From: Desulfomonile tiedjei DSM 6799
GTDB lineage: Bacteria > Desulfobacterota > Desulfomonilia > Desulfomonilales > Desulfomonilaceae
Assembly (NCBI RefSeq): GCF_000266945.1
Contig: NC_018025.1
Coordinates: 1,364,001-1,428,000, forward strand
Direction: 5' to 3'
Length of the DNA: 64,000 nt
The position numbers and the translations under genes were made by a program. Position 1 is the stretch's first letter. Each line of letters opens with the position of its first letter. Under the pieces are notes generated by a model, which searched no databases, was not told the DNA's origin, and saw only the letters and a list, made by a program, of their open reading frames with translations. This document shows, one piece after another, positions 4,943 through 54,301 of the stretch.

Positions 4943-6235
4943 TTAAGGATAGAGTCGATCCATAAGACGGGGGAAGGGGATAGTCTCTCTTACATGATGG
5001 ATACCTGCGATCCAGGTGACCGTCCGTTCGATTCCCAGGCCGAACCCTGCGTGTGGAACGGAACCGTACCTGCGCAGGTCGAGATACCATTGCAGCGGCT
5101 CTCGATCGAGACCGTGTTGTTCGATTCTGTGTTCGAGTTGCTCTAATGAGTCTTCCCGCTGGCCTCCTCCGATGATCTCGCCGTATCCTTCAGGCGCCAG
5201 GAGATCTACTGCCAATGCGAGCCTTGGATCGTGCGGATCTCGTTTCATGTAGAACGCCTTAACATCTGCTGGGTACCGGGTCACAAAGAGCGGCTTGTCG
5301 AATGACTCTGAAAGCACGGATTCTTCGTCCGCTCCGAAATCGTCACCCCAGTTGAATTCCACGCCTTTTCCCTTCAACAAATCCACTGCCTCTGAATACG
5401 TGATTCTCGGAAACGGCGGCTTTATCTTTTCGAGAAAAGAAGTGTCCCGCTCCAGTATTTTCAGTTCGTCGCGGCTTTTCTCCAAGGAGTCTTCAACGAT
5501 TTTGCCAATGAGCTGCTCTGCCAGGTCAATGGTTTCGTCGAATTCCCAAAAAGCCATTTCAGGCTCGATCATCCAGAATTCGGTGAGATGTCTTCTCGTT
5601 TTGGATTTTTCAGCTCTGAAGGTAGGCCCGTGCACATAAATCTGTCCGAGCGCCATAGCCGCGGCTTCGCCGTACAACTGCCCGGATTGCGTGAGGTACG
5701 CGGAACGATCGAAGTATGCCACTTCAAATAGTGACGTGGTTCCTTCGCATGCTGTAGGAGTCAGCACCGGTGCCTCTATGGAAATGAATCCGAGGTCGTC
5801 GAAAAAGGTTCGGGCTGTACGGGTGATCTGGGAGCGGAGTTTCAGGAGCGCATGTTGTTTTGAGGATCGAAGCCACAGGTGCCTGTGATCCATGAGAAAA
5901 CCTACTCCGTGATCCTTCTTCGCTATGGGATATTCTTCGGCCTCGAAGAGCATCTCCATATCCGTGACGCTTATTTCATACCCAATGGGGGATCTCGGTT
6001 CTTTTTTTGCGATTCCTCGAATGACCACCGACGATTCGTAGGGAATTCGATCAGACAAATCAAATACTTCGGCCGACGTTTGATCTTTGGTAACGACACA
6101 CTGAATTATGCCGTGCCCGTCCCGAAGATGGAGAAATCTGATTTTCCCTGAAGACCGTCTGTTCGCGATCCAGCCGCGAAGTTCTACTTGCTGACCTTCA
6201 AACTTGTGAACCTTGTCCACAGTGAGCCAGTTCAT
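4943..6235 (-). CDS. asnS: Asparagine--tRNA ligase
   Basis: Class II synthetase that charges tRNA-Asn directly. 430 aa, normal for bacteria. An N-terminal OB-fold anticodon-binding domain (about 15-100; VELRGWIANRRSSGKIRFLHLRD) is followed by the catalytic domain with CEGTTSLFEV, YLTQSGQLYGEA, motif 2 TFRAEKSKTRRHLTEFWMI and motif 3 GFGLGIERTVTWIAG. The absence of an AspRS-type insertion and the AsnRS-type motif 2 region argue for asparagine rather than aspartate. It is divergent from the LolA-like gene. Confidence 0.95.
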   Translation of the reverse strand: MNWLTVDKVHKFEGQQVELRGWIANRRSSGKIRFLHLRDGHGIIQCVVTKDQTSAEVFDLSDRIPYESSVVIRGIAKKEPRSPIGYEISVTDMEMLFEAEEYPIAKKDHGVGFLMDHRHLWLRSSKQHALLKLRSQITRTARTFFDDLGFISIEAPVLTPTACEGTTSLFEVAYFDRSAYLTQSGQLYGEAAAMALGQIYVHGPTFRAEKSKTRRHLTEFWMIEPEMAFWEFDETIDLAEQLIGKIVEDSLEKSRDELKILERDTSFLEKIKPPFPRITYSEAVDLLKGKGVEFNWGDDFGADEESVLSESFDKPLFVTRYPADVKAFYMKRDPHDPRLALAVDLLAPEGYGEIIGGGQREDSLEQLEHRIEQHGLDREPLQWYLDLRRYGSVPHAGFGLGIERTVTWIAGIHHVRETIPFPRLMDRLYP

Positions 6236-6374
6236 AATACCCTCCTGGACTCATTCATCCGGCAACATTGTGCATCAGACAATCCCACGGGTCAAGGACG
6301 GTGGCCTGTCTTATTGTTGAAGAATGGTTGTTCTCCATTGCATCATGGTGATGCCTCTGGTAAGAAGACCATTT

Positions 6375-7193
6375 ATGGAAAAACAGTTTTTTCAAGGGCG
6401 GTTCACCCTCAAAATACAAATCCCGGGAAAATGGTTCACGACCTTACTTTTTTGCGGAGTCCTGGGTATCGTCTCGGTTGGGGTGACTTCTTCGTCCGCG
6501 GTCGAATCGGCTGCAACTCCTCAGGAAATTCAGACAAGACTCACTGACAAGGGAAAAAACCTTTCCGCGCTCAAGGCGGTAATGAATATTACCAGCTCCT
6601 ATGAGCAAGGAAAATCCAGGCAGGATGTAAAAGGATTTCTCCTGTACCGGCGGCCGTCGGACTTTCGGTTCCAGGGAGTTGCTCCTGGCGGAAATTCCCT
6701 GTTCGAGTTGATCATCAAATCCAACTTTTTTGAGCTGTACATTCCTTCCGAAGGAAAAATCATCAAGGGAAACAAGGATTGTTTCAGCCGCAAGTTTCCC
6801 GATGTCGCGGAAATAGAGTCGCTCATTCCTCTCGTATTGCTGCAATGGAAAGACGTAAGACCGGATAGGCTGCTCTCCAGAGACAATCAAAAAATAGTGA
6901 TGCGCATGAGTTTTCGGGGAAAAGTATGGGCCGCTACTCTCGAGCCCCAGACTCTTCATTTGAAGCGACTGGTTCGCCTGAACCCTTCAGGTGAAATCGA
7001 TCTGACTGCCGATTTCTCGGATTTTAAAGCAGGAACTGAAGGCTGGTTACCCACGCGCTTCGACGTCCAGTCCACTTCAGCAGGATGGAAGACACTTGTC
7101 CGCATCGGTCAGTTGGAGCCAAACCCCTTTCTTGTGGAAAAGAATTTCAAACTGGAGACAACCTTTTCACCGAGAATTGAAGACTGCAGATGA
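6375..7193 (+). CDS. LolA/LolB-fold periplasmic protein (DUF4292-like)
   Basis: Probably 272 aa from ATG 6375; the frame is open from 6324. A charged N-terminus is followed by a hydrophobic segment (WFTTLLFCGVLGIVSVGV) and small residues, consistent with a signal peptide or anchor. The remainder has the beta-rich pattern of LolA-like proteins that hold lipid or lipoprotein acyl chains (NLSALKAVMNITSS, GFLLYRRPSDFRFQGV, NPSGEIDLTADFSDF). Its place directly before waaA suggests an envelope role. The assignment rests on pattern rather than a diagnostic motif, and the start lacks a strong ribosome site. Confidence 0.6.
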   Translation: MEKQFFQGRFTLKIQIPGKWFTTLLFCGVLGIVSVGVTSSSAVESAATPQEIQTRLTDKGKNLSALKAVMNITSSYEQGKSRQDVKGFLLYRRPSDFRFQGVAPGGNSLFELIIKSNFFELYIPSEGKIIKGNKDCFSRKFPDVAEIESLIPLVLLQWKDVRPDRLLSRDNQKIVMRMSFRGKVWAATLEPQTLHLKRLVRLNPSGEIDLTADFSDFKAGTEGWLPTRFDVQSTSAGWKTLVRIGQLEPNPFLVEKNFKLETTFSPRIEDCR

Positions 7194-7285
7194 TTGCGGT
7201 CCGTGCTGTGCCCGTGTGACGTCCGTCATATGCAGTTGTGAACGGCCCTTGTGCGAGCATTGGAGCATTCTCGGAAAGACCTGCA

Positions 7286-8605
7286 ATGAATCTTCTTGCG
7301 TACAATCTGTTTCTTCACACAGTAGCCGCTCCATTCTTGGCGGCGTATTATGCGCCGCAAATCATGTTCAAAGGAAAATATCGGAACTCTTTATCGGGAA
7401 AATTAGGAAAGATCGCAGCCGATTTTCCTTTGAGACCTCTCCGAAGACCGAGGATCTGGTTCCATGCCGTTTCGGTCGGTGAAGTCACTGCTCTGAACCC
7501 TCTCGTGCAAGCAGTGAAAGAACTCGTACCGGAGAGTTCCGTGATTGTCTCGACTGGAACGGAAACCGGTCAGCAAAAAGCTCGGGAATCGATAAAGAAT
7601 GCTGACGGATTCTTGTACATGCCACTGGATTTTCCCGAATTCCTGAATCCCGTGATCAAGACGATCGATCCCGATCTGTTCGTGCTCATGGAAACGGAAT
7701 TGTGGCCGAATCTTATACACCTCCTCAAACATCGGGGCACAATGCTTGCCATTGCCAACGGACGCATCTCTGACAGATCGTTCCCGCGCTATAGAAAGCT
7801 CCGGCGCTTCTTTTCGTCTACATTGGAAAAGCTGGATCTGTTGCTTATGTCTACAGATACGGATGCAGCGAGAATACGTGACATGGGTGCTCCTGAAACG
7901 GCAATTCATGTGACGGGCAATACAAAATTCGATGCTGCTCTCACTGCGCTGCCTTCCATTCCTGATCCGCAATTGTGCGCTGCTCTGGAACTCACTGGTG
8001 AAGAGCCTGTCCTTGTCGCAGGAAGCATTCATCCCGGGGAATTTGAAATACTCCTGGACGCGTACGACTCGCTCACGGCTCGATTTCCGGAACTCATTCT
8101 CATCCTTGTCCCTCGGCATATAGAACGAACCCCCCAGATACTGGCGCTAATCAATGAGAAGAAGCTCGACGCGCCTCTTCTGAAGACTGCTGCAGACCGC
8201 GGAGAGAAACGAAACGGCCGAAGCATTATCGTAGTGGATAAAATTGGGGAGCTGTTCCAAATCTTCTCACTCGCATCGGTGGTCTTTATCGGGGGATCGC
8301 TCGTGAAGAGAGGCGGACAGAACATCCTGGAGCCTGCGGCCTGGGGAAAAGTGGTGCTGTTCGGTCCCTCAATGGAAGACTTTCGCGAAGCGAGGGATGC
8401 GCTGGTTTCCGCAGGAGCCGGAATTCAGGTGAGGGACACGTCCGATCTGGTTCGCTGGGTTGCAGCAATGCTGTCCGACAGATCTGACGCAGAAGAGCGG
8501 GGGATGCGAGGCAAGCAGGAGATAATGAAGCATATCGGCAGCTCGAGGAGAAACGCGCAAATTCTCGTCAATAGCTTAAAAGCAAGGCGCATTGACAGGC
8601 AATGA
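7286..8605 (+). CDS. waaA: 3-deoxy-D-manno-octulosonic acid (Kdo) transferase
   Basis: Inner-membrane GT30 glycosyltransferase that adds Kdo from CMP-Kdo to the lipid A precursor. 439 aa from ATG 7286, which has GGAAAG upstream. An N-terminal hydrophobic anchor (LLAYNLFLHTVAAPFLAAYY) leads into HAVSVGEVTALNPL carrying the conserved Glu, ETELWPNL, NGRISDRS, VTGNTKFD and the donor site VAGSIHPGEFEILLDAY, then GGSLVKRGGQNILEPA. With lpxB elsewhere in the window it shows that the cell makes lipopolysaccharide. Confidence 0.94.
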   Translation: MNLLAYNLFLHTVAAPFLAAYYAPQIMFKGKYRNSLSGKLGKIAADFPLRPLRRPRIWFHAVSVGEVTALNPLVQAVKELVPESSVIVSTGTETGQQKARESIKNADGFLYMPLDFPEFLNPVIKTIDPDLFVLMETELWPNLIHLLKHRGTMLAIANGRISDRSFPRYRKLRRFFSSTLEKLDLLLMSTDTDAARIRDMGAPETAIHVTGNTKFDAALTALPSIPDPQLCAALELTGEEPVLVAGSIHPGEFEILLDAYDSLTARFPELILILVPRHIERTPQILALINEKKLDAPLLKTAADRGEKRNGRSIIVVDKIGELFQIFSLASVVFIGGSLVKRGGQNILEPAAWGKVVLFGPSMEDFREARDALVSAGAGIQVRDTSDLVRWVAAMLSDRSDAEERGMRGKQEIMKHIGSSRRNAQILVNSLKARRIDRQ

Positions 8606-38555: not shown

Positions 38556-40268
38556 GTAACCGTGGGTGCAAGAAACTGTCTCAAAACTCCATTTTGGGCT
38601 CGCGATTTGCCAAGAGATGTACTAGAAAGGAGAGGAATTCAACAACCACGAGGCTGTCATGGGCAAACAGATCCGGGCCGATTACGAACAGATCTTGATG
38701 TTTCCGCCGTCAGTGGAAGACTGGGTGGCTAAGGATCACCCGGCGCGCTTTATCCGAGATTTCGTGGATTCCTTGGATCTGTCCGAGTTGGGAATCGAGG
38801 TTCCCGACAGCGATACAGGACGTCCTCCGTATGCGCCAGATCTTCTGTTGAAGGTGTGGCTTTTCGGATACTTCAATCGGATCAGGAGTACCCGTAAGCT
38901 TGAGAAGGGTTGCCTTGAGAATATGGGGCTGATTTGGCTGACGGGGATGAATGCTCCGGATCATAATTCCTTATGGCGATTCTTCAAGGCGAACAAGAAA
39001 TCATTGAGGCATCTGTTCAGACAGTCGATTCGTGTTGCTCTGAAGGCCGATCTGATCGGTCTAGCTCTTCATGCCGTGGACGGGACCAAGATCCAAGCCG
39101 TCTCATCCAACGACAAGGCTCGGGGTCGTGAGCACCTGGAGAGGTTTCTGGAAAGTGTTTCGGAGAGATTGGACCGCACGATTGCCGATGCGATGACTGA
39201 GATAGAGAGAGCCGAGCGGGAAGAGACCGGTGAGTATCGCCTTCCGCAGTCCATGCAAGACGGATTGAAACGGAAACAGCGGATACAAGAGGCTCTGAAG
39301 GAGTTGGATGAATCGGACAAGAAGTCAGTTCACCCTTCGGAACCGGAAGCTCGCTTTATGAAGAATCGCCGGACCAAAGACTTGTCGTACAACGCTCAGG
39401 CGGTTGCCGACCAAAAGAGCGGCCTTATCGTGGCCGCAGATGTGGTCACGGATGGGGCCGACAACGGGCAATTGGTCCCCATGCTCGACAAGGTGAAAGA
39501 GAATCTGGGCGCTGTGGCAGAGGAAAATGTGGCGGACGGGGGATATTTTTCCTCAGGGCAGATAGGTCTGGCCCATGAGCGAGAATACGGCATTCTTATC
39601 GGGAAATCGTCAGGGGAAATTGTTTCCGAGAGAGGTGCGGATGAGGATCTCTATCACCGATCCCGGTTCGTCTTTGATCAGGAGCGTGATTGCTTCATAT
39701 GCCCTGAAGGGCGCTTGTTGCCTTTTCATCAGCGGAAAATTAACGGCAAGAACCACAATGAGGTTCGCAGGTATCACTGCAAGGATTTTCTAACGTGTCC
39801 CAATCGCTGGAAATGCTCCAAGAGCAAGAACGGACGCCTCATAGACCTCAGCGTTTACGAGGCGGCCCTAGAACGACACCGCAGCAAGAGGGAAAAACCA
39901 GAGAACAAAGAGCGCCTGAAGACTCGAAAGAAGATTATCGAGCCACCGTTTGCCTGGATCAAGAGCGCATTAAGCTTTCGGCGATGGACCGTGGCCGGAA
40001 TCGACAACGTAAAGGCCCAGTGGGACCTTATTTGCACGACCATAAATCTCAGGAAGCTCTACCACCATTGGGTATCCGGCGAGGTGGCATTCACGTAAGC
40101 AGCCGGAGGGAGACCATGACCTTATAACGGACAGTACACTCGGATCGAACCTCGCCTGATCTTCACTTGACGGGACTGCTTTTTTCCCAGAAGCAGGTCC
40201 TCCCGTCCGGCTTGCGTGATTCGCCGCAGTGCGCAGGTTTTGAGACGCTTTCGCAAACCCACGGTTAC
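38556..40268 (+). mobile_element. IS1182-type insertion sequence
   Basis: About 1.71 kb. Imperfect 32-bp terminal inverted repeats: 38556-38587 (GTAACCGTGGGTGCAAG...TCTCAAAAC) against the complement of 40237-40268 (GTAACCGTGGGTTTGCG...TCTCAAAAC). No target duplication is obvious. The flanks are family F palindromes (AGCCCCGAAGGGGCT on the left, GGACCCTGAAAGGGTCC on the right). Confidence 0.8.
38659..40098 (+). CDS. IS1182 family transposase
   Basis: 479 aa, intact. N-terminal DUF772-type domain (QILMFPPSVEDWVAKDHPAR, RPPYAPDLLLKVWLFGYFN, RSTRKLEKGCLENMGLIWL) and a DDE core with LHAVDGTKIQAVSS, ENVADGGYFSSGQIG and the late Glu in KKIIEPPFAWIKSALSFRRW. A Cys-rich insertion CPEGRLLPF...CPNRWKC lies between the last two, as in IS1182 members. 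No frameshift or stop, so the element may be active. Confidence 0.93.
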   Translation: MGKQIRADYEQILMFPPSVEDWVAKDHPARFIRDFVDSLDLSELGIEVPDSDTGRPPYAPDLLLKVWLFGYFNRIRSTRKLEKGCLENMGLIWLTGMNAPDHNSLWRFFKANKKSLRHLFRQSIRVALKADLIGLALHAVDGTKIQAVSSNDKARGREHLERFLESVSERLDRTIADAMTEIERAEREETGEYRLPQSMQDGLKRKQRIQEALKELDESDKKSVHPSEPEARFMKNRRTKDLSYNAQAVADQKSGLIVAADVVTDGADNGQLVPMLDKVKENLGAVAEENVADGGYFSSGQIGLAHEREYGILIGKSSGEIVSERGADEDLYHRSRFVFDQERDCFICPEGRLLPFHQRKINGKNHNEVRRYHCKDFLTCPNRWKCSKSKNGRLIDLSVYEAALERHRSKREKPENKERLKTRKKIIEPPFAWIKSALSFRRWTVAGIDNVKAQWDLICTTINLRKLYHHWVSGEVAFT

Positions 40269-40738: not shown

Positions 40739-41734
40739 TCAATCCATGGTATAGCCCGCTTTGCGGATCATAGCGACATCGTCCTCCAGACTTCTGCCTC
40801 CGGTGGTCAAATACCCCCCGACGATCATCCCGTTTGCCCCGGACCTGAGCGCCATTGCCTGAAAATCGGTCAAGTTGCGCTCTCTGCCACCGGCCACTTT
40901 TATGGTGGCTTTGGGGAGAATCAGCCGGAAAATGGCGATGGTCTTCAGGATCTCCAGCGGTTCGGGCTGTGCCACCTCGTACAGAGGAGTACCTTTTCTG
41001 GGATTGAGTATATTGATAGGCACACAGTCGACTCCGAGATCTGCGAGCGTAAAAGCAAGATCCAGTCTTTGGTCGGGAGTTTCCCCCATACCAATGATTC
41101 CTCCACTGCACGCAGAAAAACCATGGTGCATCACGGTACGAACCGTGTCCACCCGCTGGTCGAAATGGTGGGTTGTAACGATTTGCCCATAATAATCGCG
41201 GGAGGTCTCCAGATTATGGTTGTACCGTGTCACTCCTGCTGCTGCCAATCTTTCCGCTCTGACATTATCCAGGAAGCCCAATGATGCGTCCAAATGGATG
41301 TCGACTTCTGCGCGTACGCGTTCCAAGGATTGGATAAGAGTATCGAATTCCTTAGCTGACAAAGCCCCGCCGCTGGTAACCGTGCAGAAACGAGATGCAC
41401 CGGCTTCTCGAGCTTTTTGTGCGGCCAGGAGAATTTCCTCTCCGCTCTTGAGACCGTATACATCGCATTCACCATGATGATGCCCGGATTGTGCGCAGAA
41501 TGCGCAGTCTTCGCTACATCGACCCGATTTCGCATTGATAAGCGAACAGGAATCGAACTTGGAGCCTTTGAACGCGATCCTGATGCGATCCGCGGCTGCC
41601 AAGAGATGCATGAGAAACTCGTCGGGAATCTGAAGGAGCTTTCGTGCTTCCGTCTGCTCTATGCTTTTTGCGTCAAGGATCTTCTCTTCAATGGAATTTA
41701 TAAGCCTATAAAAAGATATCTCTTGAGTAATCAT
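40739..41734 (-). CDS. bioB: Biotin synthase
   Basis: Radical SAM enzyme that inserts sulfur into dethiobiotin. 331 aa from ATG 41734, which has GGAGG upstream (frame open to 41749). The SAM cluster is GRCSEDCAFCAQSGHH. ASLGFLDNVRAERLAAAGVTRYNHNLET, CSGGIIGMGE, PINILNPRKGTPL, the Arg in KVAGGRERNL and the end GGYLTTGGRSLEDDVAMI fit BioB. Other bio genes are not adjacent and no clear BirA operator is visible; the leader is next to a family A repeat. Confidence 0.95.
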   Translation of the reverse strand: MITQEISFYRLINSIEEKILDAKSIEQTEARKLLQIPDEFLMHLLAAADRIRIAFKGSKFDSCSLINAKSGRCSEDCAFCAQSGHHHGECDVYGLKSGEEILLAAQKAREAGASRFCTVTSGGALSAKEFDTLIQSLERVRAEVDIHLDASLGFLDNVRAERLAAAGVTRYNHNLETSRDYYGQIVTTHHFDQRVDTVRTVMHHGFSACSGGIIGMGETPDQRLDLAFTLADLGVDCVPINILNPRKGTPLYEVAQPEPLEILKTIAIFRLILPKATIKVAGGRERNLTDFQAMALRSGANGMIVGGYLTTGGRSLEDDVAMIRKAGYTMD

Positions 41735-41907
41735 GTAAAGAACCTCCACAATAAATTCTATATACTCCCATCACATCCAGAAATCCAGACTGGCAACCAA
41801 ATCGAACCATCTGCATCTAAATTGACGGAACCTGAAACTCGGCCACTTAAGCGCACATGCTTGTGTCGGCCATATCAGAGGTGAAGATCTTTTCACAGGA
41901 ATTGCCA

Positions 41908-51265: not shown

Positions 51266-52780
51266 TCAGCCCGCTTTTTCGCTTGCCGACTTTCGCTTTT
51301 CGGGAACACTATCGGCGTACTTGGCCTGAATCTTTCTGCACACGTCATCCTTCACAGTCTGCCAGGAGCAGAATGCTGTTGTTCTGATGCGGCCCGAATC
51401 CACATCTTCGTATGCGAACACGGCAGGACAATCTTTGAGGCGAGCATCCTCGAGACCTCCCTTGTCCTCGTATGGGATGGTGAGAAGGGTCAGTACATGC
51501 TTGAAGCTTGTTCGGTTTTTGAGTATCTCGTCGATCTTTCGGCCTCGAGCCAGGTCTGTGAGTGCTCCAATTATGTTTGTAAACGCCGAGCCACCGAATA
51601 TACGTCTTATGTTGAGGTTTTTTCCCAGTGTTTTCGTCAGCGCCCAAAATGATGCAATGTCGACGAACGTCTTTCTCAAGCCGTTCGTTTTCTTACGTGC
51701 AGGTTTGGCCGCCAACTTCGAATCGATCTTGCGCAACGCAACGAGCAGTTCCGAAAGAGATACTTTCAGGTAATCGGAAAGAGGAGAATATTTCTCGCCG
51801 TCTGAAACCAGCACAGTGGCACTCTCGCAATTGGGATGCGAACCGCCGAGAGTCTGTTTCCCGAAAAACCGGGAGAGAACCTCGAACTTCATCATTCCCG
51901 TGGAGACAAACTCCACTCCATGGATCATTTCCTCAAAAACCTGTTCCACGCATTCGGTTGTCGTAGGTTCCAGGTTCACGTTATCCCCTTCCCAGCAGGG
52001 AGTGAGCGGAACAAAAGCCCAAACCGAAACGTGCTCGCGGTGCTGGTGGATGAACTCCAGCATGTCACGCATGTTTCCGTCGTTGACGCCTACCGCTAAC
52101 GTGGTGGTAATCACCAGTTTGTTCACTCCGCACTCGATGACGTTCTCCAAGCCCTTCTTCTTGGCTGCCAGAGAATTGTCCCCGCGAAGAGTCTTGTAGA
52201 TTGTCGGACGAGTGCCGTCGAATCCGAAGTTCACCTGGATTCCCAGGGAACATAATTCCTTGCAATAAGCCTTATCGGCAAGCTTAATGCCATTCGTAAA
52301 TAGCTGTACCTGAAAGCCGTACGATTTCGCCAGCTTGACTATGGTGAGGAAATCTTCGTGAACAGTGGGTTCCCCACCGAAAAAGCAGATATTCGGCCGA
52401 GGATCGTTATCCCGGAAGTGCTTAAAAACTTTATCAAAGTATTCAACCGGCGGATGATACGCGTACCCCATGGCATCGACGTACGCAAGGCAAATCGGGC
52501 AATGCTGATTGCACAGGTTTGTAACGTCCACGGAAACGGTAGTCGGAGGAGTGTGCGCCTGATGATCGCATTCTTTGCAGTTCAGGGAACACGCTGGATG
52601 AGCCGGTTCCTTGTACCCGACCACTTCTCTTTTCCAGCGCCATTTCCGCGCATTCTTGGTAACGAGCGTGGAAGAGCGGCCGCATTCTCGGCAGAATTTG
52701 ACCAGGTACACTTTGTTGTTTCTGATTTCGTAGCATGCATCAGCAGGATTACCGCATTTTTCGCACAAACCGATTTTCAT
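51266..52780 (-). CDS. Radical SAM protein, tetraether/membrane-spanning lipid synthase-like
   Basis: 504 aa from ATG 52780 (AGGGAG upstream); the frame is open to 52882. The N-terminal zinc-ribbon-like pairs are CEKCG and CRECG, then ACSLNCKECDHQAHTPPTTV, then the radical SAM cluster VTNLCNQHCPICLAY, GGEPTVHEDF, QLFTNG and NFGFDGTRPTIYKTLRG. This order of Cys motifs resembles archaeal Tes (MJ0619-type) and the bacterial enzymes proposed to join lipid tails. MoaA-type alternatives lack the N-terminal ribbons. The last 170 residues carry further Cys (LKDCPAVF, FCSWQTVKDDVC). Divergent from lpxB. Confidence 0.8.
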   Translation of the reverse strand: MKIGLCEKCGNPADACYEIRNNKVYLVKFCRECGRSSTLVTKNARKWRWKREVVGYKEPAHPACSLNCKECDHQAHTPPTTVSVDVTNLCNQHCPICLAYVDAMGYAYHPPVEYFDKVFKHFRDNDPRPNICFFGGEPTVHEDFLTIVKLAKSYGFQVQLFTNGIKLADKAYCKELCSLGIQVNFGFDGTRPTIYKTLRGDNSLAAKKKGLENVIECGVNKLVITTTLAVGVNDGNMRDMLEFIHQHREHVSVWAFVPLTPCWEGDNVNLEPTTTECVEQVFEEMIHGVEFVSTGMMKFEVLSRFFGKQTLGGSHPNCESATVLVSDGEKYSPLSDYLKVSLSELLVALRKIDSKLAAKPARKKTNGLRKTFVDIASFWALTKTLGKNLNIRRIFGGSAFTNIIGALTDLARGRKIDEILKNRTSFKHVLTLLTIPYEDKGGLEDARLKDCPAVFAYEDVDSGRIRTTAFCSWQTVKDDVCRKIQAKYADSVPEKRKSASEKAG

Positions 52781-52903
52781 AATCGCTCCCTGACATATAA
52801 AAGAATGGCTCCAAGAAATCGGAATGAGTATTTCTTTGGAAGCCGTACATTGATGTGGAAAAGATCGCTTATTAAGGCGCAATGCTTATCACATGCTTTT
52901 TTC

Positions 52904-52933
52904 TTGTCAAGCTAAAAAGATTTGTGAGATACT
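52904..52933 (+). promoter_or_regulatory. Candidate lpxB promoter
   Basis: TTGTCA (52904-52909), 18 bases, GATACT (52928-52933). It gives a leader of about 125 bases. Confidence 0.35.
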
Positions 52934-53065
52934 GAAAGGTTGGAAAAGAAATCAACCAAAATGCCCGTGCAGGAACCACATTCTTTTGCCAATGGAGCGC
53001 TCTCGGAATGCTCATGAAAATGTGGTATGCACGGATATTCAATCCAACCGGGCAAGAGGTGCTGT

Positions 53066-54301
53066 ATGCATCGAGGACCGTCCATACTTCTACTTGCTGG
53101 AGAAGCATCCGGTGATTACCACGCGGCCGCTCTCGTGAGGGAAGTACGAAAGCTCAGGCCTGAAACACGATTTGTGGGTATAGGTGGAGACAAGCTCGCA
53201 GCAGAAGGAATGGAGCTGCTGTTTCACTACAAGGATGTGAATACCATCGGCCTGAGTGAAGGCTTTGCAAAAATACGAAGTATCTACCGCGCGTATCAAT
53301 CCATGAAGGATCAGTTGCGTGACGGCGGGCACCAGCTTTTTATCCCGGTAGACTATCCCGATGTGAATATCCGGCTCTGTCTGTTTGCAAAAAGAGCAGG
53401 GATTCCTGTGTGTTATTACATCAGCCCCCAGGTGTGGGCATGGCGTAAAGGCAGGACACGCAAACTGGCGAACCGCGTGAACCGCATGATGACGCTGTTT
53501 CCTTTTGAAGAGAAGCTCTACCGCAGGGCAGGTTTACAGGCCTACTTTGTCGGGCATACCATGGTGAACGATATTCCCGAAAATCTGGGCAGAGCTGTCG
53601 TCCGTTCCGGGTTGAACCTCGATCCTGATAAGTACACGGTTGCACTGGTCCCGGGAAGCCGTCCGGCAGAGATTATCCGTATGCTTCCCAAGATGTGTGA
53701 GGCAGCCGATTCATTTACCAGGGAGTTCCATGATACCGCCTTCGTGCTTCCTCTGGCCGGTCCTCATCTTTCGGAGTTGGTAGATCGAATCCTGACGAAG
53801 TATTCCTCCCAGATTCACGTGCACCGAACCGAAGCTTCAACGCTCATGGCTGCTGCCGACTGCGGTCTCGTGACTTCAGGAACAGCGACGCTTCAGGCAG
53901 CACTGGCCGGAATGCCGCATATCGTCGCGTACGAGTTGGATTCCCTGAGCTGGTGGTTTGCCACAAGGATTCTCAAACCCTTACTCATGGATAAGGATCT
54001 GCATGTAGCCATTGCCAATGTTCTGGCAATTCAGCAGGAAAAGGAAGGAAAAGGGCCGATCAAGTTCATGCTCGATGCAGGATTTCACGTGCCCTGTCAG
54101 GAATGCCGAAGACCGCTCTTCGTACCTGAATTGCTCCAGGATCATGCTACTGCGCCAAATATGGCCGCATGGCTCAGGCGATTCAGAACCGAACCGTCCC
54201 TTTGCGCAGCAATGGCCCGCGGTTTCTCGGATTTGAGACGATCTCTCGAACCGACCCGGACAGGACCGACCGCAGCAGAAATCGTCTCCGAGTTTCTGTG
54301 A
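53066..54301 (+). CDS. lpxB: Lipid-A-disaccharide synthase
   Basis: GT19 membrane-associated transferase joining UDP-diacylglucosamine and lipid X. 411 aa from ATG 53066 (AGAGGTG upstream; frame open from 53027). Signature segments: LLLAGEASGDYHAAALVREV, FVGIGGDKLAAEGMEL, IPVDYPDVNIRLCLFAKRAG, YYISPQVWAWRKGR, FPFEEKLYRRAG, YFVGHTMVND, ALVPGSRPAEIIRMLPKM and LVTSGTATLQAALAGMPHIV. Not in the usual lpxD-fabZ-lpxA-lpxB run; it stands alone here. Confidence 0.95.
   Translation: MHRGPSILLLAGEASGDYHAAALVREVRKLRPETRFVGIGGDKLAAEGMELLFHYKDVNTIGLSEGFAKIRSIYRAYQSMKDQLRDGGHQLFIPVDYPDVNIRLCLFAKRAGIPVCYYISPQVWAWRKGRTRKLANRVNRMMTLFPFEEKLYRRAGLQAYFVGHTMVNDIPENLGRAVVRSGLNLDPDKYTVALVPGSRPAEIIRMLPKMCEAADSFTREFHDTAFVLPLAGPHLSELVDRILTKYSSQIHVHRTEASTLMAAADCGLVTSGTATLQAALAGMPHIVAYELDSLSWWFATRILKPLLMDKDLHVAIANVLAIQQEKEGKGPIKFMLDAGFHVPCQECRRPLFVPELLQDHATAPNMAAWLRRFRTEPSLCAAMARGFSDLRRSLEPTRTGPTAAEIVSEFL

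What the first reader, a model, noticed from the sequence alone, without database searches (positions are those of the whole stretch)
51266..52780. Tes-like radical SAM enzyme in a probable deltaproteobacterium
The N-terminal double zinc-ribbon pairs, the CSLNCKECDH box and the CNQHCPIC cluster have the order known from archaeal tetraether lipid synthase and the bacterial enzymes proposed to make membrane-spanning or diabolic-acid lipids. It is divergent from lpxB, a lipid gene. It may indicate unusual tail-to-tail lipids in this organism.
Basis: partly seen in the sequence, partly recalled or inferred. Interest (0 to 1): 0.55.

Follow-up and report, generated by a model that had tools for sequence, protein, structure and literature searches.

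The report
Divergent bacterial relative of tetraether synthase
A sulfate-reducing bacterium carries an enzyme built like the archaeal enzyme that welds lipid tails together, but so different in sequence that it forms a branch of its own, and what it makes is not yet known.

Summary
An intact 504-residue radical SAM gene lies at 51266-52780 (minus strand), divergent from lpxB. It resembles archaeal tetraether synthase (Tes, MJ0619) along its whole length: the best solved structure by sequence and by predicted fold is 7tol/7tom (VIA-align Z 33.4, 442 residues; next entry MoaA, Z 16.4). Ligands for all four Tes metal sites are conserved.

It fails membership of Tes (160 bits, cut-off 450) and of TrsS (153, cut-off 490). 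In trees it is a separate clade (support 100/99) on a long stem; deeper attachment is unresolved. Residues invariant in the Tes rows compared are replaced, among them Met439, Tyr459 and two of the adenosine pocket. The clade occurs in 17 of 18 family genomes, 0 of 24 others in the class, and two distant relatives. lpxB is the divergent neighbour in 16 of 17.

Best reading: a third branch of Tes-architecture enzymes that probably couples tails of an envelope lipid. Architecture rests on sequence and a medium-quality model; substrate and product are inferred. MoaA/SPASM placement is not supported.

The parts
51266..52780 (-). Tes-architecture radical SAM gene, 504 aa, ATG start
52682..52765 (-). 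N-terminal rubredoxin/zinc-ribbon module, C6 C9 C30 C33 (fourth ligand Cys where the 22 other rows compared have His)
   Evidence: Pfam PF23545; column mapping on MjTes; invariant in 9 of 9 rows of A2
52562..52591 (-). ligands of the predicted N-terminal auxiliary [4Fe-4S] site: C64 C68 C71 H73
   Evidence: aligned to MjTes C73 C77 C80 and a His at 83; the paper gives C73, C77, C80 and a conserved histidine (PMC9433317 passages)
52490..52513 (-). radical SAM cluster CX3CX2C: C90 C94 C97
   Evidence: PF04055
51827..51829 (-). C318, first cysteine of the predicted C-terminal auxiliary [4Fe-4S] site (aligned with MjTes C338)
   Evidence: ligand role inferred from conservation in the Tes, TrsS and clade rows
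51512..51757 (-). helical, poorly conserved stretch (residues 342-423), inferred to stand where Tes has its lipid-pocket helices
   Evidence: AF2 model secondary structure, alignment A2, structural match to 7tom spanning residues 1-499
51368..51430 (-). C451 and C471, second and third cysteines of the predicted C-terminal cluster (MjTes C455, C470); Ile435 and Phe455 stand at MjTes Met439 and Tyr459
   Evidence: Ile435 lies just outside these coordinates, at 51476-51478
52781..53026 (.). 246-bp divergent intergenic region between this gene and lpxB
   Evidence: same divergent order in 16 of 17 family genomes
53027..54301 (+). lpxB, lipid-A-disaccharide synthase, conserved divergent neighbour
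   Evidence: TIGR00215 254 bits (cut-off 190.25), PF02684

Best explanation
This gene encodes a member of a third branch of Tes-architecture radical SAM enzymes, next to Tes and TrsS, with no family model of its own in the libraries searched. It is predicted to have a rubredoxin-like metal site, an N-terminal auxiliary [4Fe-4S] cluster with one His ligand, the SAM-cleaving cluster, a helical cap, and a C-terminal auxiliary [4Fe-4S] cluster held by three cysteines with one iron left open. Most likely it works as Tes does. The 5'-deoxyadenosyl radical takes a hydrogen from the end of a hydrocarbon tail. The carbon radical is parked on a sulfur of the C-terminal cluster. A second SAM activates a second tail, and a C-C bond joins the two. 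The probable substrate is an envelope lipid (phospholipid or lipid A). Shown here: ligand conservation, predicted fold, separate clade, distribution, synteny. Inferred: cluster occupancy, lipid substrate, C-C coupling.
For: The best PDB sequence match is MjTes: 124.8 bits with the single sequence, 189 bits with the clade profile against 48 for MoaA. BLASTP aligns residues 3-476 at 27% identity. The AF2 model (mean pLDDT 73, pTM 0.76, 4-row alignment) matches 7tom at Z 33.4 over 442 of 504 residues, range 1-499; the next entry is MoaA at 16.4. Thirteen Cys plus one His at the four metal sites are invariant in 9 of 9 rows of A2. They are also present in the other family genomes: in 17 loci of 16 genomes every ligand covered by the contig is kept; G396 is cut at its end and G401 is split over two contigs. 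Two residues that are completely conserved in archaeal Tes and lost here, Met439 and Tyr459, are ones whose M439A and Y459F variants stay active in MjTes (PMC9433317 passages). The gene is present in 17 of 18 family genomes, next to lpxB in 16 of 17. No signal peptide-like N-terminus (simple hydropathy scan only).
Against: Only 26-30% identical to MjTes across the 9 clade rows. TrsS, which shares the architecture and is not known as a lipid enzyme (recalled), is closer to Tes than this protein is (L010 375 bits on the Tes model against 160). Adenosine-pocket residues Phe106 and Gln268, and Tyr195 and Arg275, are replaced, so SAM binding or the reaction may differ. The structure model is middling: the other four models averaged pLDDT 58 or less, and the loops at 65-67, 90-104 and 312-314, near three of the predicted metal sites, are under 50. 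lpxB adjacency was seen in one bacterial family only. No lipid of the expected kind is reported for this organism in what I saw of the papers searched.
Confidence: 0.45

Rival explanations
1. It acts on lipid A or another LPS acyl chain rather than on phospholipid tails, for example joining or extending hydroxy fatty acyl chains, which would explain its fixed place beside lpxB.
For: Divergent lpxB neighbour in 16 of 17 family genomes. [quoted passage not shown] the paper itself was not read).
Against: No lpxB on the contigs of the two distant clade members (8.8 and 8.3 kb, tblastn E 1e-3). Synteny within one family can be mere inheritance; G386 lacks it. Branched hydroxy acids can be made without a radical SAM enzyme (general knowledge).
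Confidence: 0.18
2. It is a non-lipid enzyme like TrsS: the same metal architecture used on a small molecule or metabolite.
For: The TrsS model scores nearly as well as the Tes model (153 against 160 bits). Deep placement is not resolved: holding the clade with TrsS is not rejected (AU p 0.186), while the free unrooted tree puts it with Tes at 88/89 and the outgroup-rooted one outside both.
Against: The genome already has a true TrsS (673 bits) in a separate cluster with methyltransferase, C_GCAxxG_C_C and NTP-transferase genes, and this gene has no such neighbours. A variable helical stretch is predicted where Tes has its cap.
Confidence: 0.2
3. It performs a different reaction on a hydrocarbon chain (sulfur insertion, desaturation, branching or methylene bridging) rather than tail-to-tail coupling.
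For: MjTes passes through a sulfur-bound lipid intermediate (PMC9433317 passages), so a changed active site could stop there. Several adenosine-pocket and cluster-proximal residues differ.
Against: No direct evidence for any such product; the C-cluster cysteines are kept.
Confidence: 0.15

Closest known systems
Tes / GDGT-MAS (MJ0619; NF045702; PDB 7tol, 7tom)
   Same: Domain order, four sets of metal ligands, predicted fold over nearly the whole length
   Different: 27% identity to MjTes; 160 bits against a 450 cut-off; His36 to Cys, Met439 to Ile/Leu, Tyr459 to Phe, Gln268 to Val/Ile, Arg275 to Glu/Asp/Gly; N-cluster His one residue closer
TrsS radical SAM (seleno)protein (NF045646)
   Same: Same N-terminal ribbon, N-cluster, RS core and C-terminal Cys pattern in the 9 TrsS-like rows compared
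   Different: 153 bits against a 490 cut-off; the genome's own TrsS is elsewhere; the 9 TrsS-like rows keep His36, Met439, Gln268 and Arg275
Bacterial membrane-spanning lipid synthase Mss
   Same: Proposed tail-to-tail coupling; Mss models are said to conserve the Tes catalytic architecture (PMC13274423 passages). Mss and Tes homologues are already reported in Desulfobacterota MAGs, 34 and 10 of 262 (PMC11868695 passages)
   Different: Not comparable here: no Mss sequence was obtainable with the tools
MoaA and SPASM peptide maturases
   Same: Radical SAM core only
   Different: 58 bits or less against cut-offs of 231 and more in the 25 of 35 families shown; no SPASM domain reported by Pfam at E 0.001

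Membership tests
Radical SAM superfamily | CX3CX2C cluster in a PF04055 domain | tested here: met
   73.1 bits, cut-off 29.5; C90 C94 C97
Tes (NF045702) | curated equivalog cut-off of 450 bits | tested here: not met
   160.3 bits; three bacterial Tes-like proteins scanned score 488-562
Tes (NF045702) | ligands of the four metal sites | tested here: met
   14 of 14 positions hold Cys or His; the fourth rubredoxin ligand is Cys instead of His and the N-cluster His is one residue nearer. The three C-cluster ligands are inferred, as the passages read do not name them
Tes (NF045702) | Met439 and Tyr459, completely conserved in 1,000 archaeal homologues | tested here: not met
   Ile/Leu and Phe in 9 of 9 clade rows; conservation statement from PMC9433317
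Tes (NF045702) | fold including N- and C-terminal cluster domains | tested here: met
   Z 33.4, rmsd 3.7, 442 residues to 7tom, on a model of mean pLDDT 73
Tes (NF045702) | forms biphytanyl-type C-C bonds | not testable with these tools
   needs enzyme assay and lipid analysis
TrsS (NF045646) | curated cut-off of 490 bits | tested here: not met
   153 bits; the genome's real TrsS scores 673
TrsS (NF045646) | trs gene neighbourhood (recalled, not looked up) | tested here: not met
   neighbours are lpxB and an alpha-glucan phosphorylase; methyltransferase, C_GCAxxG_C_C and NTP-transferase genes surround the other gene
Mss | sequence similarity to Thermotoga/Clostridia Mss | not testable with these tools
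   no Mss sequence or named profile was found here
MoaA / SPASM maturases | family cut-off or SPASM domain | tested here: not met

The most novel reading that the evidence does not exclude
A new branch of lipid-coupling radical SAM enzymes, fixed in one family of sulfate reducers, that works on lipid A or other outer-membrane lipid precursors and so makes covalently tail-linked envelope lipids in a mesophilic Gram-negative bacterium.
Probability: 0.1. Interest if true: 0.85.

Novelty: new variant of a known kind. Interest (0 to 1): 0.45.

Why it matters
Bacterial makers of membrane-spanning lipids are a sought source of branched tetraethers used as climate proxies. Published screens used at least 30% identity with E below 1e-30 (PMC11868695), or E below 1e-50 with identity above 20 or 30% (PMC8941075). 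This clade is 26-30% identical to MjTes with E about 1e-36 to 1e-45 even against that single sequence (those screens used other Tes queries), so it would probably be missed. If its members couple lipid tails, the set of possible producers is wider than counted. If they do not, they show how the Tes architecture was turned to other chemistry. If the host is the cultured Desulfomonile tiedjei, as its genome size suggests, both outcomes are testable.

Tried and rejected
MoaA/SPASM placement was rejected on profile scores, sequence searches of solved structures and fold. Membership in Tes and in TrsS was rejected on curated cut-offs and trees. A deeper placement was tried and left open. The outgroup-rooted tree sets the clade outside Tes plus TrsS (82/73 for the rest as one group), with four long outgroup branches flagged. 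Without outgroup it groups with Tes (88/89). Holding Tes with TrsS together, or this clade with TrsS, is not rejected (p 0.133 and 0.186).

The ~190-residue lipoprotein-like gene directly upstream in L019 and L025 was sought in the 18 family genomes and not found, but that search had no positive control. Viral contigs gave six matches of 22-29% over at most about 160 residues, no clade member. Plasmids gave seven records with distant relatives, none covering 80% of the query. A search of 8 genomes of G122's family found the clade in G122 alone.

Literature: searches for Desulfomonile with ether, hydroxy or diabolic lipids, for radical SAM with lipid A and lpxB (no paper), and for Tes, Mss or TrsS. 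No title, abstract start or passage that I saw names this protein; most listed papers were seen as listings only, and passages were read of PMC8941075, PMC9433317, PMC13274423, PMC11868695, PMC11150832, PMC2211471 and PMC11186832. The original Mss paper is not held. Two PlsA/Ger-sized proteins (1452 and 1413 aa) in the genome carry BcrAD and DUF2229 domains and could make ether lipids, but no HGD-D domain was reported and no Ger profile was found, so this is only suggestive.

Rows dropped: of 35 proteins taken, 27 went into the trees; L020 (another radical SAM type), L042 (partial) and near-copies L027, L031, L034, L035, L044, L048 were left out. Matches beyond the 30 loci given were not extracted. 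NCBIfam was run on 4 of the 9 clade proteins.

Full report
What is there. The window holds an intact gene on the minus strand, 51266-52780, 504 codons from an ATG with a plausible ribosome site. The main contig of the genome has 6,500,104 bases. I recall that size for Desulfomonile tiedjei DSM 6799, and the nearest named records (L017, L018) are Desulfomonile, but the window itself is unnamed. The genome has 61 matches to the radical SAM family, so a radical SAM gene as such is ordinary here.

What it resembles. Pfam finds the HMPTM zinc ribbon (5-40) and Radical_SAM (86-244). NCBIfam ranks Tes first at 160 bits and TrsS second at 153, then MoaA at 58; none reaches its cut-off (450, 490, 231). 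In the PDB the first hit is MjTes, 124.8 bits, then SkfB at 21.6. With the profile of nine clade members MjTes scores 189 and MoaA 48. An AlphaFold2 model from four sequences (mean pLDDT 73.2, pTM 0.76; the other four models averaged 58 or less) matches 7tom over residues 1-499, Z 33.4, 442 residues aligned, rmsd 3.7, against Z 16.4 for the next entry. Loops at 65-67, 90-104 and 312-314, near the predicted metal sites, are of low confidence.

Metal sites. The ligands published for MjTes are C9, C12, C33, H36 (rubredoxin-like iron), C73, C77, C80 plus a histidine ([Fe4S4]N), CX3CX2C, and a C-terminal cluster with labile Met439 (PMC9433317, passages). On an alignment of 31 proteins the query has Cys, Cys, Cys, Cys at the first site; Cys, Cys, Cys, His at the second; three Cys at the third; and C318, C451, C471 where MjTes has C338, C455, C470. 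I infer from their conservation that these last three bind the C-terminal cluster; the passages read do not name them. The pattern holds in 9 of 9 clade members and in the rest of the family: 14 loci hold all 14 ligands, G401 does so over two contigs, and G396 is cut off by its contig end.

What differs. Cys at H36 is found in the clade only; the 22 other rows have His. Met439 is Ile or Leu, Tyr459 is Phe. Of the residues named as binding adenosine, Phe106 is Leu, Gln268 is Val/Ile, Ser271 is Thr and Arg210 is kept. Tyr195 is Asn or Met and Arg275 of the closing loop is Glu, Asp or Gly; Asp199 and Gly145 are kept (roles). In MjTes, M439A and Y459F keep robust activity, so those two changes do not by themselves argue against the chemistry. 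The changed adenosine pocket is a real difference whose effect is unknown.

Where it belongs. In maximum-likelihood trees the nine proteins form one clade (100/99 or better) on a stem of 1.8-2.0 changes per column, apart from Tes (10 rows) and TrsS (9 rows). Its deeper attachment is unresolved. Three other relatives on plasmids (Halorarius, Mycolicibacterium, Persicobacter) score 285-324 bits on the Tes model, well above the 147-186 of the four clade members scanned. I therefore do not file it under Tes. Tes and Mss homologues as such are already reported in Desulfobacterota (10 and 34 of 262 Black Sea MAGs; PMC11868695 passages), and I found true Tes-like proteins in the phylum too; what is unusual is this branch.

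Distribution. In an even draw of 395 genomes of the phylum, 54 have a relative at E below 1e-20, but 6 have a clade member: the window's genome, four of its family, and G122, a genome recorded with 8% contamination, the only one of 8 in its family. Within the window's family 17 of 18 genomes have it; in the rest of the class 0 of 24. A Sumerlaeota contig (L019, 38%) carries the other distant member; it groups with that of G122. The genome-contig scan used short exact patterns and reaches close relatives only, and other phyla could not be sampled, so the clade may be wider.

Neighbours. lpxB is the immediate divergent neighbour in the window and in 15 of the 16 other family genomes with the gene; G386 is the exception. 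In 10 of the 17 genomes a glycosyltransferase-2 gene lies downstream; in four the contig ends at the gene, and three, the window among them, have none. On the contigs of L019 and of G122 no lpxB was found. There the upstream gene encodes a ~190-residue lipoprotein-like protein without a Pfam family, and L025 has a rhodanese/phospholipid-methyltransferase-like gene downstream. These neighbours point loosely to the cell envelope.

Mechanism. By analogy with MjTes: SAM cleavage, hydrogen abstraction at a tail end, storage of the carbon on the C-terminal cluster, a second abstraction, C-C coupling, two SAM per bond. The helical stretch at 342-423 is inferred to sit where Tes binds its lipids. None of this chemistry is shown for the clade. 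Rivals are a lipid A-specific reaction, a TrsS-like non-lipid reaction, and another reaction on a chain.

Verdict. A divergent branch of a known enzyme architecture, probably overlooked by identity-based screens, probably in a cultured organism. Real, moderately interesting, function open.

Noticed in passing
L088 (G000:C1:2139000-2153000), gene at 6513-7877: The genome's true TrsS (673 bits) sits with a methyltransferase, a C_GCAxxG_C_C redox protein and an NTP-transferase/HD protein; a 354-aa neighbour (5445-6506) had no Pfam match.
   Followed up: partly
L019:2952-3518 and 6715-7320; L025:3015-3587: An unnamed lipoprotein-like family (about 190 aa, no Pfam match, conserved TTLDI...DD tail) directly upstream of the radical SAM gene in two distant organisms, with a second copy in L019.
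   Followed up: partly
L083:3965-5356 (Persicobacter plasmid): A Tes/TrsS relative in which all three C-terminal cluster cysteines are replaced (Ala, Ser, Glu in the alignment), so it may lack that cluster.
   Followed up: no
L082:3962-5410 (Halorarius plasmid): A haloarchaeal relative that lacks two of three N-cluster cysteines and the His, with two annotated methyltransferase genes beside it.
   Followed up: no
G000:C1:1585550-1586194 and 569801-570412: Two very long (1452 and 1413 aa) BcrAD-DUF2229 proteins of the size of PlsA/Ger ether-lipid enzymes (size recalled).
   Followed up: partly
window 38659-40098: An IS1182 family transposase (369 bits, cut-off 270).
   Followed up: partly
window 40739-41749: A second radical SAM gene in the window, biotin synthase BioB (392 bits, cut-off 225).
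   Followed up: partly
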